Source: Liopterus haemorrhoidalis
Taxonomy: Eukaryota; Arthropoda; Insecta; Coleoptera; Dytiscidae
Direction: 5' to 3'
Assembly (NCBI GenBank): GCA_963971575.1
Contig: OZ020613.1
Coordinates: 43,576,239 to 43,640,238, forward strand
Length of the DNA: 64,000 bases
In this document: positions 14,683 to 23,600 of the stretch, in pieces
Numbering within the stretch: position 1 is the first letter of the stretch
How the letters are laid out: each line of letters starts with the position of its first letter
Program-made: the position numbers and the translations under genes
The notes under the pieces: generated by a model
The model's input: only the letters and a program-made list of their open reading frames with translations
Told to the model about the DNA's origin: nothing
The model's database searches: none

Positions 14683-17600
14683 GTAAAACTTATTTTTAAT
14701 ATTATTATAATTATTATGATTTATTTGTATTTCACAACGCATGACTAGTCATGAAAGAGCTACGTAATTCTAATTCAATAAATTGCCGTTACATAATTTT
14801 CTTTAATAACATATCCACTACATCGGAATTACTAAAGAGCTCCGTCAAGTTAGCAATTGATCGAGCCAGCAAGTAATCGACACGGGCAGGATATTACAGC
14901 GGACCAAATCAAGTAACGCTGTTGAATAAAATCGTTGTTTTTTATAGAATTAAACAAGTTGCAGTTCTGAACTTTTTACCAACCATGAGGAATAGGTACA
15001 GGAATCGAATGATGGCTAAACGAAAATTTTCTCAAGCGTCAGAGGCGCGCAATTAATTTTTTTCTCTCGAAACCACTCGCTATCAACATAAAACTAACAA
15101 TATCGCTAGAATTAAACAAGTTCAAGTTCTGAACTTTTTACCAACCATGAGGAATAGGTACAGGAATCGAATGATGGCAAAACGAAAATTTTCTCACGAG
15201 TCAGAGGCGCGCAATTAATTTTTTTCTCTCGAAACCACTCGCTATCAATATAAAACTAACAATATCGCTAGAATTAAACAAGTTCAAGTTCTGAACTTTT
15301 TACCAACCATGAGAAATAGGTACAGGAATCGAATGATGGCTAAACGAAAATTTTCTCACGCGTCAGAGGCGCGCAATTAATTTTTTTCTCTCGAAACCAC
15401 TCGCTAACAACATAAAACTAACAATATCGCTAGAATTAAACAAGTTCAAGTTCTGAACTTTTTACCAACCATGAGGAACAGGTACAGGAATCGAATGATG
15501 GCTAAACGAAAATTTTCTCACACGTCAGAGGCGCGCAATTAATTTTTTTCTCTCGAAACCACTCGCTATCAACATAAAACTAACAATATCGCTAGAATTA
15601 AACAAGTTCAAGTTCTGAACTTTTTACCAACCATGAGGAATAGGTACAGGAATCGAATGATGGCTAAACGAAAATTTTCTCACGCGTCAGAGGCGCGCAA
15701 TTAATTTTTTTCTCTCGAAACCACTCGCTATCAACATAAAACTAACAATATCGCTAGAATTAAACAAGTTCAAGTTCTGAACTTTTTACCAACCATGAGG
15801 AATAGGTACAGGAATCGAATGATGGCAAAACGAAAATTTTCTCACGCGTCAGAGGCGCGTAATTAATTTTTTTCTCTCGAAACCACTCGCTATCAATATA
15901 AAACTAACAATATCGCTAGAATTAAACAAGTTCAAGTTCTGAACTTTTTACCAACCATGAGGAATAGGTACAGGAATCGAATGATGGCTAAACTAAAATT
16001 TTCTCACGCGTCAGAGGCGCGCAATTAATTTTTTTCTCTCGAAACCACTCGCTATCAACATAAAACTAACAATATCGCTAGAATTAAACAAGTTCAAGTT
16101 CTGAACTTTTTACCAACCATGAGGAACAGGTACAGGAATCGAATGATGGCTAAACGAAAATTTTCTCACGCGTCAGAGGCGCGCAATTAATTTTTTTCTC
16201 TCGAAACCACTCGCTATCAACATAAAACTAACAATATCGCTAGAATTAAACAAGTTCAAGTTCTGAACTTTTTACCAACCATGAGGAATAGGTACAGGAA
16301 TCGAATGATGGCTAAACGAAAATTTTCTCACGCGTCAGAGGCGCGCAATTAATTTTTTTTTCTCGAAACCACTCGCTATCAACATAAAACTAACAATATC
16401 GCTAGAATTAAACAAGTTCAAGTTCTGAACTTTTTACCAACCATGAGGAATAGGTACAGGAATCGAATGATGGCTAAACGAAAATTTTCTCACGCGTCAG
16501 AGGCGCGCAATTAATTTTTTTCTCTCGAAACCACTCGCTATCAACATAAAACTAACAATATCGCTAGAATTAAACAAGTTCAAGTTCTGAACTTTTTACC
16601 AACCATGAGGAATAAGTACAGGAATCGAATGATGGCTAAACGAAAATTTTCTCATGCGTCAGAGGCGCGCAATTAATTTTTTCCTCTCGAAACCACTCGC
16701 TATCAACATAAAACTAACAAAATCGCTAGAATTAAACAAGTTGAAGTTCTGAACTTTTTACCAACCATGAGGAATAGGTACAGGAATCGAATGATGGCTA
16801 AACGAAAATTTTCTCATGCGTCAGAGGCGCGCAATTAATTTTTTCCTCTCGAAACCACTCGCTATCAACATAAAACTAACAAAATCGCTAGAATTAAACA
16901 AGTTGAAGTTCTGAACTTTTTACCAACCATGAGGAATAGGTACAGGAATCGAACGATGGCTAAACGAAAATTTTCTCATGCGTCAGAGGCGCACAATTAA
17001 GTTTTTTCTCTCGTATAAAATGTGTCGCCTTGAATTCTTTACCAAATATGTAGATATAGCATTGAAATCGAACAAAAGTCGAATAAAAAATTTCCCGATA
17101 TTCAGAGGCGCGCAATTAGTTTTTTTTCCTCAAAACCACGTTCTTTCCGAAACGGATCGTGTGACCTCGGTTTTTATCGATGAAGACAGTCACCGAAGCT
17201 AGTTCAAACTGGCATTTATGTGCCTGTAGTACCTATCCGTGCCTATTTCATGTTGGGTCGTATTTGTAACATTTCACTTACTAATTATACTGATTCTAAT
17301 AATAAGTGAAATGTTACAAATATCACATGAAATAAGCAAGAATAGGTAATACAGGGACGTAAATGTCAGTTATATCCTTTAGTTTAAATCAGGTTAAATA
17401 TGGTAGATATGTAGTAACAACGGCTCGGCACGGATGAGTACTATTTTACGATTAACTGACATTTTATTTACGTGCCTGTACTATCTATCCGTGCCTATTC
17501 CATGTCAGGTCGTATTTGTAACATTTCACTTACAAATAATATTGATTCTAATAATAAGTGAAATGTTACAAATATGACATGAAATAAGCAGGAACAGGTA

Positions 17601-20600: not shown

Positions 20601-23600
20601 TGTTAGTTTTATGTTGATAGCGAGTGGTTTCGAGAGAAAAAAATTAATGGCGCGCCTCTGACGCGTGAGAAAATTTTCGTTTAGCCATCATTCGATTCCT
20701 GTACCTGTTCCTCATGGTTGGTAAAAAGTTCAGAACTTGAACTTGTTTAATTCTAGCGATATTGTTAGTTTAATGTTGATAGCGAGTGGTTTCGAGAGAA
20801 AAAAATTAATTGCGCGCCTCTGACGCGTGAGAAAATTTTCGTTTAGCCATCATTCGATTCCTGTACCTATTCCTCATGGTTGGTAAAAAGTTCAGAACTT
20901 GAACTTGTTTAATTCTAGCGATATTGTTAGTTTTATGTTGATAGCGAGTAGTTTCGAGAGAAAAAAATTAATTGCGCGCCTCTGACGCGTGAGAAAATTT
21001 TCGTTTAGCCATCATTCGATTCCTGTACCTGTTCCTCATGGTTGGTAAAAAGTTCAGAACTTGAACTTGTTTAATTCTAGCGATATATATTGTTAGTTTT
21101 ATGTTGATAGCGAGTGGTTTCGAGAGAAAAAAATTAATTGCGCGCCTCTGACGGGTGAGAAAATTTTCGTTTAGCCATCATTCGATTCCTGTACCTATTC
21201 CTCATGGTTGGTAAAAAGTTCAGAACTTGAACTTGTTTAATTCTAGCGATATTGTTAGTTTTATGTTGATAGCGAGTGGTTTCGAGAAAAAAAAATTAAT
21301 TGCGCGCCTCTGACGCGTGAGAAAATTTTCGTTTAGCCATCATTCGATTCCTGTACCTATTCCTCATGGTTGGTAAAAAGTTCAGAACTTGAACTTGTTT
21401 AATTCTAGCGATATTGTTAGTTTTATGTTGATAGCGAGTGGTTTCGAGAGAAAAAAATTAATTGCGCGCCTCTGACGCGTGAGAAAATTTTCGTTTAGCC
21501 ATCATTCGATTCCTGTACCTATTCCTCATGGTTGGTAAAAAGTTCAGAACTTGAACTTGTTTAATTCTAGCGATATTGTTAGTTTTATGTTGATAGCGAG
21601 TAGTTTCGAGAGAAAAAAATTAATTGCGCGCCTCTGACGCGTGAGAAAATTTTCGTTTAGCCATCATTCGATTCCTGTACCTGTTCCTCATGGTTGGTAA
21701 AAAGTTCAGAACTTGAACTTGTTTAATTCTAGCGATATATATTGTTAGTTTTATGTTGATAGCGAGTGGTTTCGAGAGAAAAAAATTAATTGCGCGCCTC
21801 TGACGGGTGAGAAAATTTTCGTTTAGCCATCATTCGATTCCTGTACCTATTCCTCATGGTTGGTAAAAAGTTCAGAACTTGAACTTGTTTAATTCTAGCG
21901 ATATTGTTAGTTTTATGTTGATAGCGAGTGGTTTCGAGAAAAAAAAATTAATTGCGCGCCTCTGACGCGTGAGAAAATTTTCGTTTAGCCATCATTCGAT
22001 TCCTGTACCTATTCCTCATGGTTGGTAAAAAGTTCAGAACTTGAACTTGTTTAATTCTAGCGATATTGTTAGTTTTATGTTGATAGCGAGTGGTTTCGAG
22101 AGAAAAAAATTAATTGCGCGCCTCTGACGCGTGAGAAAATTTTCGTTTAGCCATCATTCGATTCCTGTACCTATTCCTCATGGTTGGTAAAAAGTTCAGA
22201 ACTTGAACTTGTTTAATTCTAGCGATATTGTTAGTTTTATGTTGATAGCGAGTGGTTTCGAGAGAAAAAAATTAATTGCGCGCCTCTGACGCGTGAGAAA
22301 ATTTTCGTTTAGCCATCATTCGATTCCTGTACCTATTCCTCATGGTTGGTAAAAAGTTCAGAACTGCAACTTGTTTAATTCTATAAAAAACAACGATTTT
22401 ATTCAACAGCGTTACTTGATTTGGTCCGCTGTAATATCCTGTCCGTGCCGATTACTTGCTGGCTCGATCAATTGCTAACTTCACACGCATTTACTAAAGG
22501 TGTGTTCATTTGTGTTACTCAACCTACACCACAGGTATGCTATGGCGTTCGTTTGTGTTCCGACACCTGTACGTAAAGTGTTTGTTTGTATTTATGAACT
22601 TATTCAGTAAAAGCAAAATCTACACTTGCTCGTGAGTGAGTGTAGCTTCAGGCAACCTGTAAAAAGGTGACAAACTTAACTTGTTAATCGGTTATTAACT
22701 GAAATGTTTGGTAAAGTTTTATGAACTGTTTTATTAGTCATGCTGGCTGCAGTTTCGGTAATATTTACTATTTTCAAAGCTACAATACTTATACAAAAAC
22801 TTACATCTTATATATACATATACACGAAACAAACGGGAGGTGGAAGCAGATATAGTTTAACAAATGTATAACAAAAAACCAGAGCTATAAACTAATCTTT
22901 AGACTTATTAACGGCGAAGTGGTGAATTCCGTCATTTCATTCAGGGGGTTTATTGTCTTCATGATCTCGTGCGCCTCCAGCAGATTAAGTTTATGGCCTT
23001 TCTCTTGGGAGTGTAATGCTTCGGGGTTGAAAGATGCGGTATGGTTTTCGGTTATGATATGTGATGCAAACGTAGAATCTTGGGTTTGTTTCCCAAGTCT
23101 GAATTTTCCCAATCTAACTTGGTTATAACCTGTATTCGGTCTAGCAGAAATTTTTATTTTACATCTGTCTATCTATCATATATCGATCATGAATCGAGTA
23201 ATGTCAATAAAAGGAAAGTACTTTTCCTACAATGCTGGTAACTAACATAAATAAATTCAGAAATTTTATAAAACATGTGAAAACTTGAATTTTTATTATT
23301 TATTTTTATAAAATTTACTTCAGCATTTAAACTGTTCATATTATATTATTTATTTACTATTGGATACAACAATGCCCGATGGCGGCGCTAACAGCTGATT
23401 GAAACGAGTAATGTGAAAGTTGTCCATATTTGTTTACATGTTAAATCATCGATTTGCAATGGATAATAAACAGCTATCCTTATTAAATTATTTAATTTTT
23501 TTAAGTGCAACACCTTCTTCTAGGTGTGTAGTTGAAGGAGAAGAGTTGTTAAACGCCGGAAATCTTATGTTGTGCGGAATTTTGGACAAAAATGATGAGC

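What the first reader, a model, noticed from the sequence alone, without database searches (positions are those of the whole stretch)
14838..22490. 7.65-kb Foldback-like element built from opposed 162-bp satellite arrays, with 9-bp end duplications
Seen: TTACTAAAG directly at both outer edges, ~100-bp unique TIR ends, and ~12 forward versus ~28 reverse units of exactly 162 bp around a palindromic centre. Known: Foldback (FB)/Mutator-like elements have subrepeated long TIRs and 9-bp target duplications. Inference: this is a non-autonomous FB-like family that has turned its arms into a satellite. I do not recognise the unit. It sits in intron 1 of a ZAD gene, where a transcript could fold into a kilobases-long hairpin.
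Basis: partly seen in the sequence, partly recalled or inferred. Interest (0 to 1): 0.9.

Follow-up and report, generated by a model that had tools for sequence, protein, structure and literature searches.

The report
Foldback transposon with satellite-filled arms
A 7.65-kb stretch inside a zinc-finger gene is most likely a jumping-gene insertion whose two mirrored arms have each swollen into long runs of a 162-base repeat; similar elements are already known from a beetle, a fly and nematodes, so it is a new example rather than a new kind.

Summary
A 162-bp unit repeats about 12.8 times forward and 28.7 times reversed around a palindromic centre. The arms end in a 98-bp unique inverted repeat with 2 mismatches, and a perfect 9-bp repeat, TTACTAAAG, brackets the whole. 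One correction: the inverted repeat does not reach the duplication; the outermost 9 bp differ between the ends (3 of 9 alike). Chance rarely gives such a duplication (144 of 400,000 control draws). The element lies in intron 1 of a ZAD gene: joining the two exons restores a near-full zf-AD domain. No transposase was found in it.

Best explanation: a non-autonomous Foldback-type transposon, probably of the Mutator/Rehavkus kind, whose arms grew by unequal exchange. Precedents are in print: Rehavkus-1_TC of Tribolium (164-bp satellite in its inverted termini), Tetris of Drosophila virilis (220-bp TIR repeats that became a satellite) and Tm1 of nematodes (9-bp duplications plus asymmetric tips). 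So this is a new member of a known kind; the arm size is unusual (13 and 29 units, against at most nine consecutive in Tribolium). Other copies, the transposase and an empty site could not be sought: the host-genome search did not complete.

The parts
14829..14837 (+). left copy of the 9-bp duplication TTACTAAAG (inferred target-site duplication)
14838..14846 (+). left tip, 9 bp, not inverted-repeated (3 of 9 positions match the right tip)
14847..14944 (+). left outer domain of the inverted repeat, unique, 98 bp, 2 mismatches to the right one
14945..17013 (+). left array, 162-bp unit, 12.8 copies
17031..17139 (+). diverged unit at the inner end of the left arm (70% over about 100 bp to its neighbour)
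17207..17699 (.). centre: two tandem ~252-bp units (92.7% over 234 bp), each an imperfect palindrome; 17207-17623 as a whole is also palindromic (69%)
17727..22383 (-). right array, 162-bp unit, 28.7 copies; two units of 166 bp; units R2-R5 repeated as R6-R9
22384..22481 (-). right outer domain of the inverted repeat
22482..22490 (-). right tip, 9 bp, not inverted-repeated
22491..22499 (+). right copy of TTACTAAAG
14560..14682 (+). ZAD gene, predicted exon 1 (first part of the zf-AD domain), followed by a GT donor
26585..26962 (+). ZAD gene, predicted exon after a CAG acceptor, to the next stop (second part of zf-AD; E 4.1e-7 for 26558-26962 alone, 1.6e-9 joined with exon 1). Further exons were not sought

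Best explanation
It is a single insertion of a non-autonomous Foldback-type DNA transposon, most likely moved by a Mutator-superfamily transposase (Rehavkus or another MULE). Shown: tandem-array arms in inverted orientation, a unique outer domain shared by both ends, a 9-bp duplication at the edges, no transposase found inside, and a predicted position in intron 1 of a ZAD gene. Inferred: a transposase made elsewhere recognised the outer domains (and perhaps the asymmetric 9-bp tips), cut the element out and inserted it with a 9-bp staggered cut. The 162-bp units gained copies by unequal exchange or replication slippage, to different numbers in the two arms (13 and 29 unit starts), while exchange between arms or a shared older array left common variants in both. 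Inferred and untested: if the gene is transcribed, the intron could form a hairpin of about 2.2 kb. The confidence below is for the Foldback-type insertion; I put the Mutator/Rehavkus part at about 0.65.
For: 9-bp duplication unlikely by chance. Unique outer domain with 2 mismatches in 98 bp. Both outermost units carry a variant pair, 17g/18c, found in no other unit. Exact duplication of a four-unit block including a 4-bp insertion, R2-R5 = R6-R9, as unequal exchange or slippage would leave. Of 12 variants that recur among the 38 inner units compared, 4 occur in both arms, with one two-site haplotype (73a+164t) in L2, L6, R18 and R24. Arms 97.7% complementary over 2,175 bp. Precedents: 164-bp satellite in the inverted termini of Rehavkus-1_TC; 9-bp TSD and minisatellite listed for Rehavkus; Tetris; Tm1 with asymmetric tips inside 9-bp TSDs; Muta families with 8-9 bp TSDs and, in 10 of 12 long-TIR families, subterminal tandem repeats.
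Against: Only one copy is known. The duplication does not abut the inverted repeat. No transposase was found, and no sequence comparison with any Rehavkus or MULE element was possible. The Rehavkus description in PMC6446971 places the minisatellite before the 3' TIR only and gives TIRs of 26-400 bp; arthropod MULE TIRs in PMC13359780 reach 1,193 bp; the arms here are longer (about 2.2 and 4.8 kb). Variant order is not colinear between arms (p 0.28 to 0.83), so the history of exchange is not resolved.
Confidence: 0.85

Rival explanations
1. An ordinary satellite block that suffered an inversion or inverted duplication in place, with no transposition; the 9-bp match is a coincidence.
For: Long homogeneous arrays, 97% matches. 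The 9-bp match is separated from the inverted repeat by 9 unlike bases.
Against: Both outer ends carry the same unique 98-bp domain and the same variant first unit, which an inversion inside an array would not give. The 9-bp match is rare in controls.
Confidence: 0.07
2. A Foldback element of a superfamily other than Mutator/Rehavkus (as Galileo belongs to the P superfamily). This rival shares the insertion part of the best explanation and differs only in the transposase.
For: The FB shape arises in different superfamilies: Galileo carries a P-type transposase (stated in the Tm1 discussion, and in the start of the abstract of PMC3573991). No transposase was found here.
Against: 9 bp is the TSD length given for Rehavkus, Tm1 and, with 8, the Muta families. 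Galileo's 7-bp duplication is recalled, not looked up.
Confidence: 0.2
3. A chimeric copy: two ends from different elements joined by ectopic exchange, which explains the unlike tips. It too keeps the Foldback nature.
For: The tips differ at 6 of 9 positions while the next 98 bp differ at 2. Crossover between copies is suggested for a Tm1 element.
Against: A recombinant between two insertions would not be expected to keep a matching 9-bp duplication; the Tm1 copy explained as a crossover lacked one, and it had the same tip at both ends.
Confidence: 0.1
4. The head-to-head structure is an assembly join of two satellite-bearing stretches.
For: Long near-identical inverted arrays are prone to misassembly (general knowledge); no reads were available.
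Against: The same unique outer domain at both ends, a duplication at both edges and one intron with matching splice phases across the whole fit one insertion. Unit counts could still be wrong.
Confidence: 0.05

Closest known systems
Rehavkus-1_TC with satellite TCsat23, Tribolium castaneum (PMC10218199, passages seen; family traits in PMC6446971, passages)
   Same: DNA transposon of several kilobases with a satellite unit of nearly the same length (164 bp) in tandem in its inverted termini; Rehavkus is listed with 9-bp TSDs and a minisatellite.
   Different: There mostly five and eight consecutive units, none longer than nine in the assembly; here 13 and 29 unit starts. Rehavkus-1_TC is 9.5 kb. 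PMC6446971 puts the minisatellite before the 3' TIR only and gives TIRs of 26-400 bp. Unit sequences were not compared (supplements not open, Repbase not held).
Tetris, Drosophila virilis (PMC4079207: abstract, Results part 1 of 2 and Discussion part 1 of 2 seen)
   Same: Non-autonomous Foldback; three-domain TIR with outer, tandem-repeat and inner part; 8-10 bp TSDs; arrays growing inside the element into satellite.
   Different: About 220-bp unit, outer domain up to 866 bp, TIRs up to 1,735 bp; unit shares a 37-bp stretch with the outer domain, which was not found here. No sequence comparison with Tetris was made.
Tm1, root-knot nematodes (PMC3169594: passages and Discussion part 1 of 2 seen)
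   Same: Mostly 9-bp TSDs, then asymmetric non-inverted tips (7 bp) outside a composite inverted repeat with unequal numbers of tandem units.
   Different: Unit about 14 bp; a Phantom-type MULE transposase is known for the family.
Muta1 and relatives, Aedes aegypti (PMC5225508, passages)
   Same: 8-9 bp TSDs; 10 of 12 long-TIR families have subterminal tandem repeats; Muta1 is called a type-2 Foldback.
   Different: Units 9-15 bp, Muta1 TIR 145 bp with a 10-bp imperfect palindromic tip.
TCAST transposon-like elements, Tribolium castaneum (PMC3411249 and PMC5844308, passages)
   Same: Satellite monomers in inverted orientation forming part of TIRs; 29 of 68 TCAST-like elements of both groups lie in introns.
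   Different: One nearly complete monomer and one ~121-bp piece rather than arrays, a 3-bp duplication (ACT) in some, at most 1,181 bp.

Membership tests
Foldback-type elements (structural class) | long inverted repeats made largely of tandem subrepeats | tested here: met
Foldback-type elements (structural class) | middle domain between the arms | tested here: met
   about 0.7 kb between the arrays, with the palindromic centre; no recognised coding frame
Foldback-type elements (structural class) | multiple dispersed copies | not testable with these tools
   The genome search 'own' did not answer in 12 tries; none elsewhere in the window
Mutator-like elements (MULE) | 8-11 bp target-site duplication immediately outside the TIR | tested here: inconclusive
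   9-bp duplication present but 9 bp outside the inverted repeat; Tm1 shows elements with a MULE transposase and such asymmetric tips
Mutator-like elements (MULE) | MULE/DDE transposase in the element or in an autonomous relative | not testable with these tools
   none found in the element; the genome could not be searched for a relative
Rehavkus | 9-bp target-site duplication | tested here: met
   trait; same caveat about the tips
Rehavkus | tandem repeat in the termini (164 bp, inverted termini, in Rehavkus-1_TC) | tested here: met
   162-bp units in both termini; trait. Likeness of plan and unit length only, not of sequence
Rehavkus | TIR length 26-400 bp | tested here: not met
   arms about 2.2 and 4.8 kb here; range from the table, where few Rehavkus elements were known. 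For this and for want of sequence comparison I do not file it as Rehavkus, only as working like one
Rehavkus | transposase with PHD finger | not testable with these tools
   no transposase in the element; trait
Rehavkus | sequence similarity of termini to a Rehavkus element | not tested
   no Repbase and no open supplement

The most novel reading that the evidence does not exclude
The unlike 9-bp tips are a conserved, functional left/right polarity mark of a sub-terminal-TIR transposon family, and the large intronic inverted array is transcribed with the ZAD gene into a hairpin that feeds small RNAs silencing the element family or its satellite copies in trans.
Probability: 0.08. Interest if true: 0.65.

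Novelty: new member of a known kind. Interest (0 to 1): 0.35.

Why it matters
It adds a clean single-locus case of a Foldback-type element whose arms have grown to satellite size inside an intron, in what is probably an insect, with a readable record of how the arrays grew (a four-unit duplication, variants shared between arms). It also shows unlike tips inside a 9-bp duplication, a feature described for Tm1 in nematodes. It gives a natural test of whether transposon arms are a source of satellites outside heterochromatin and of intronic double-stranded RNA. It does not open a new class.

Tried and rejected
Host genome: the genome search 'own' was asked the same question 12 times and did not complete. 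Unit pattern in viral contigs and in genome contigs: 0 matches; outer-end pattern in viral contigs: 0. Phage and plasmid collections: 4 and 8 records with short matches, E 1 or more. These are collections of viruses, prokaryotes and plasmids, so the misses say little about an insect repeat.

Is the SWIM-domain frame at 23420-23821 a MULE transposase? Not supported: SWIM scores below Pfam's cut-off and no transposase family matched (17 against 19.6 bits). Ten of 24 candidates are homologues, one named, from Dendroctonus ponderosae; I read four of the ten. That one of them looks like a SWIM plus nuclease protein is by eye and recall only.

Species: homologue searches with a reverse transcriptase (120 of 4,475 hits listed; best hit unnamed at 60%; best named hits lepidopteran at 42-43%) and with a zinc-finger protein (120 of 427 listed; names mostly vertebrate, with some insects, beetles among them) did not place the host. 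ZAD (recalled as an arthropod domain) and the Dendroctonus hit suggest an insect; a beetle is only a guess.

Does the unit derive from the outer domain, as proposed for Tetris? Not supported: scores below the shuffle mean on both strands. Outer domain against centre, minus strand: p 0.007, one of eight comparisons, weak. Unit against centre: p 0.15 to 0.45.

Is variant order shared between the arms? Not supported (p 0.28 to 0.83). Local periodicity: right arm lag 4 p 0.012 and lag 2 p 0.042, uncorrected over 13 lags; left arm lag 1 p 0.047 and lag 4 p 0.074, uncorrected over 7. The counts leave out the four end units L1, L13, R1 and R29.

Inverted 4-5 bp pairs around each duplicated 9-mer, both with 13-bp loops: 4.8% of 20,000 control pairs show 4-bp pairs with equal loops, so treated as chance. 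Rfam at gathering threshold: no match. Papers: ten searches; the one with '162 bp' gave one shrimp paper in the listing, not read. I did not see this unit or element described in what I read, but Repbase and supplements were not open, so I make no claim that it is unpublished.
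Full report
WHAT IS THERE. The element runs from 14838 to 22490. Tandem Repeats Finder reports two arrays of one 162-bp unit: 14945-17013 (12.8 copies) and 17727-22383 (28.7 copies), both at 97% matches. The second is the reverse complement of the first. Cutting both arrays at a conserved word gives 13 forward and 29 reverse unit starts; 38 of 40 intervals are exactly 162 bp, and two in the right arm are 166 because of the same 4-bp insertion. Outside each array lies a unique domain of 98 bp (14847-14944 and 22384-22481) with two mismatches between the ends. 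TTACTAAAG stands at 14829-14837 and 22491-22499, and nowhere else on the + strand of the window; its reverse complement occurs once, at 4193.

The inverted repeat stops 9 bp short of each duplication. The two 9-bp tips, read outside-in, agree at 3 of 9 positions, and no direct repeat of 3-12 bp abuts the inverted repeat itself. The duplication is nevertheless credible: it is the only word of 6 or more shared by the 49 bp outside the inverted repeat on either side. Among 400,000 draws of position pairs from the rest of the window (pairs closer than 200 bp skipped), a shared 9-mer at equal offset 0-15 came up 144 times and at any pair of offsets 0-15 1,311 times.

CENTRE AND INNER ENDS. The inner end of the left arm holds a diverged unit (17031-17128, 70% to its neighbour). 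The centre is two tandem ~252-bp units (92.7% over 234 bp), each an imperfect palindrome (78% and 74%), inside a larger palindrome at 17207-17623 (69%). No frame longer than 89 codons between stops exists in the element. Seven of the nine frames of 50 codons or more printed there were scanned against Pfam; the only match was one chance-level hit below its cut-off (E 0.078). I therefore found no transposase in it.

HOW THE ARMS GREW. Among 38 inner units (the four end units left out), 24 variants occur, 12 of them once. Of the 12 that recur, 4 are found in both arms (49c, 73a, 164t, 135t). The pair 73a+164t occurs in L2, L6, R18 and R24. Four right-arm units, with their private 4-bp insertion, are exactly repeated next to themselves (R2-R5 = R6-R9). 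Mean identity is 97.8% within the left arm, 98.3% within the right and 97.9% between them. The arms are therefore not separate lineages: either the array was already diverse when it became an inverted pair, or the arms exchange sequence. The order of variants is not colinear between the arms (p 0.28 to 0.83), so these two cannot be told apart here. The four-unit duplication is directly visible; that it came from unequal exchange or slippage, and the rest of the history, is inference.

HOST GENE. A predicted exon at 14560-14682 followed by GT, and one starting at 26585 after CAG, are in matching phase. The second alone (26558-26962) matches zf-AD (PF07776) at 30.6 bits, positions 44-70; the first alone gives no match; joined, 38.3 bits, positions 1-70 of 75, E 1.6e-9. 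The left arm (14847-17013) is complementary to 22481-20307 at 97.7% over 2,175 bp, so a transcript could fold on itself. No expression data were available.

WHAT IT IS. The combination of tandem-array inverted arms, a unique shared outer domain, a 9-bp duplication and no transposase fits a non-autonomous Foldback-type transposon. The size of the duplication points to the Mutator superfamily or Rehavkus. The unlike tips have a precedent in Tm1, whose asymmetric 7-bp tips lie between 9-bp duplications and the inverted repeat. [quoted passage not shown] Tetris of Drosophila virilis shows the same path from arm repeats to satellite. Against a filing as Rehavkus: PMC6446971 gives TIRs of 26-400 bp and a minisatellite before the 3' TIR only, and no sequence comparison with any of these elements was possible. 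So I say that it is built and probably works like them; membership in Rehavkus is a lead, not a result.

LIMITS. One copy only. The host genome could not be searched. The collections that could be searched are viral, prokaryotic and plasmid and gave nothing of weight. The host species is unknown.

VERDICT. Observation confirmed with one correction; interpretation largely right in kind; not new in kind. The size of the arrays in an intron and the unlike tips are its points of interest.

Noticed in passing
23420-23821 (+): Open frame of 133 aa with a weak SWIM zinc finger inside the same ZAD intron; 10 homologues found, one named (Dendroctonus ponderosae, 51% over 75% of the query). No sign that it is a MULE transposase.
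   Followed up: partly
13338-13894: Two 32-bp inverted repeats (93.75%) spanning 557 bp end to end, upstream of ZAD exon 1: a possible small MITE; no duplication obvious by eye at its edges.
   Followed up: partly
45027-48187: Tandem block with a 409-bp period (4.7 copies, 76% matches at 46242-48187) with more degenerate matches extending upstream to about 45.0 kb.
   Followed up: partly
14824-14844 and 22482-22504: Short inverted pairs (4 and 5 bp) with 13-bp loops around each copy of the 9-bp duplication; 4.8% of 20,000 random pairs show 4-bp pairs with equal loops.
   Followed up: yes
9203-9856 (+), 50483-51055 (+), 59343-61877 (-): Three frames with C2H2 zinc-finger arrays in one 64-kb window, one of 844 aa with 26 matched stretches of zf-C2H2, suggesting a zinc-finger gene cluster.
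   Followed up: partly
30081-33518 (+): Non-LTR retrotransposon: a frame with PHD finger and Baculo_FP domain, then a reverse transcriptase frame.
   Followed up: no
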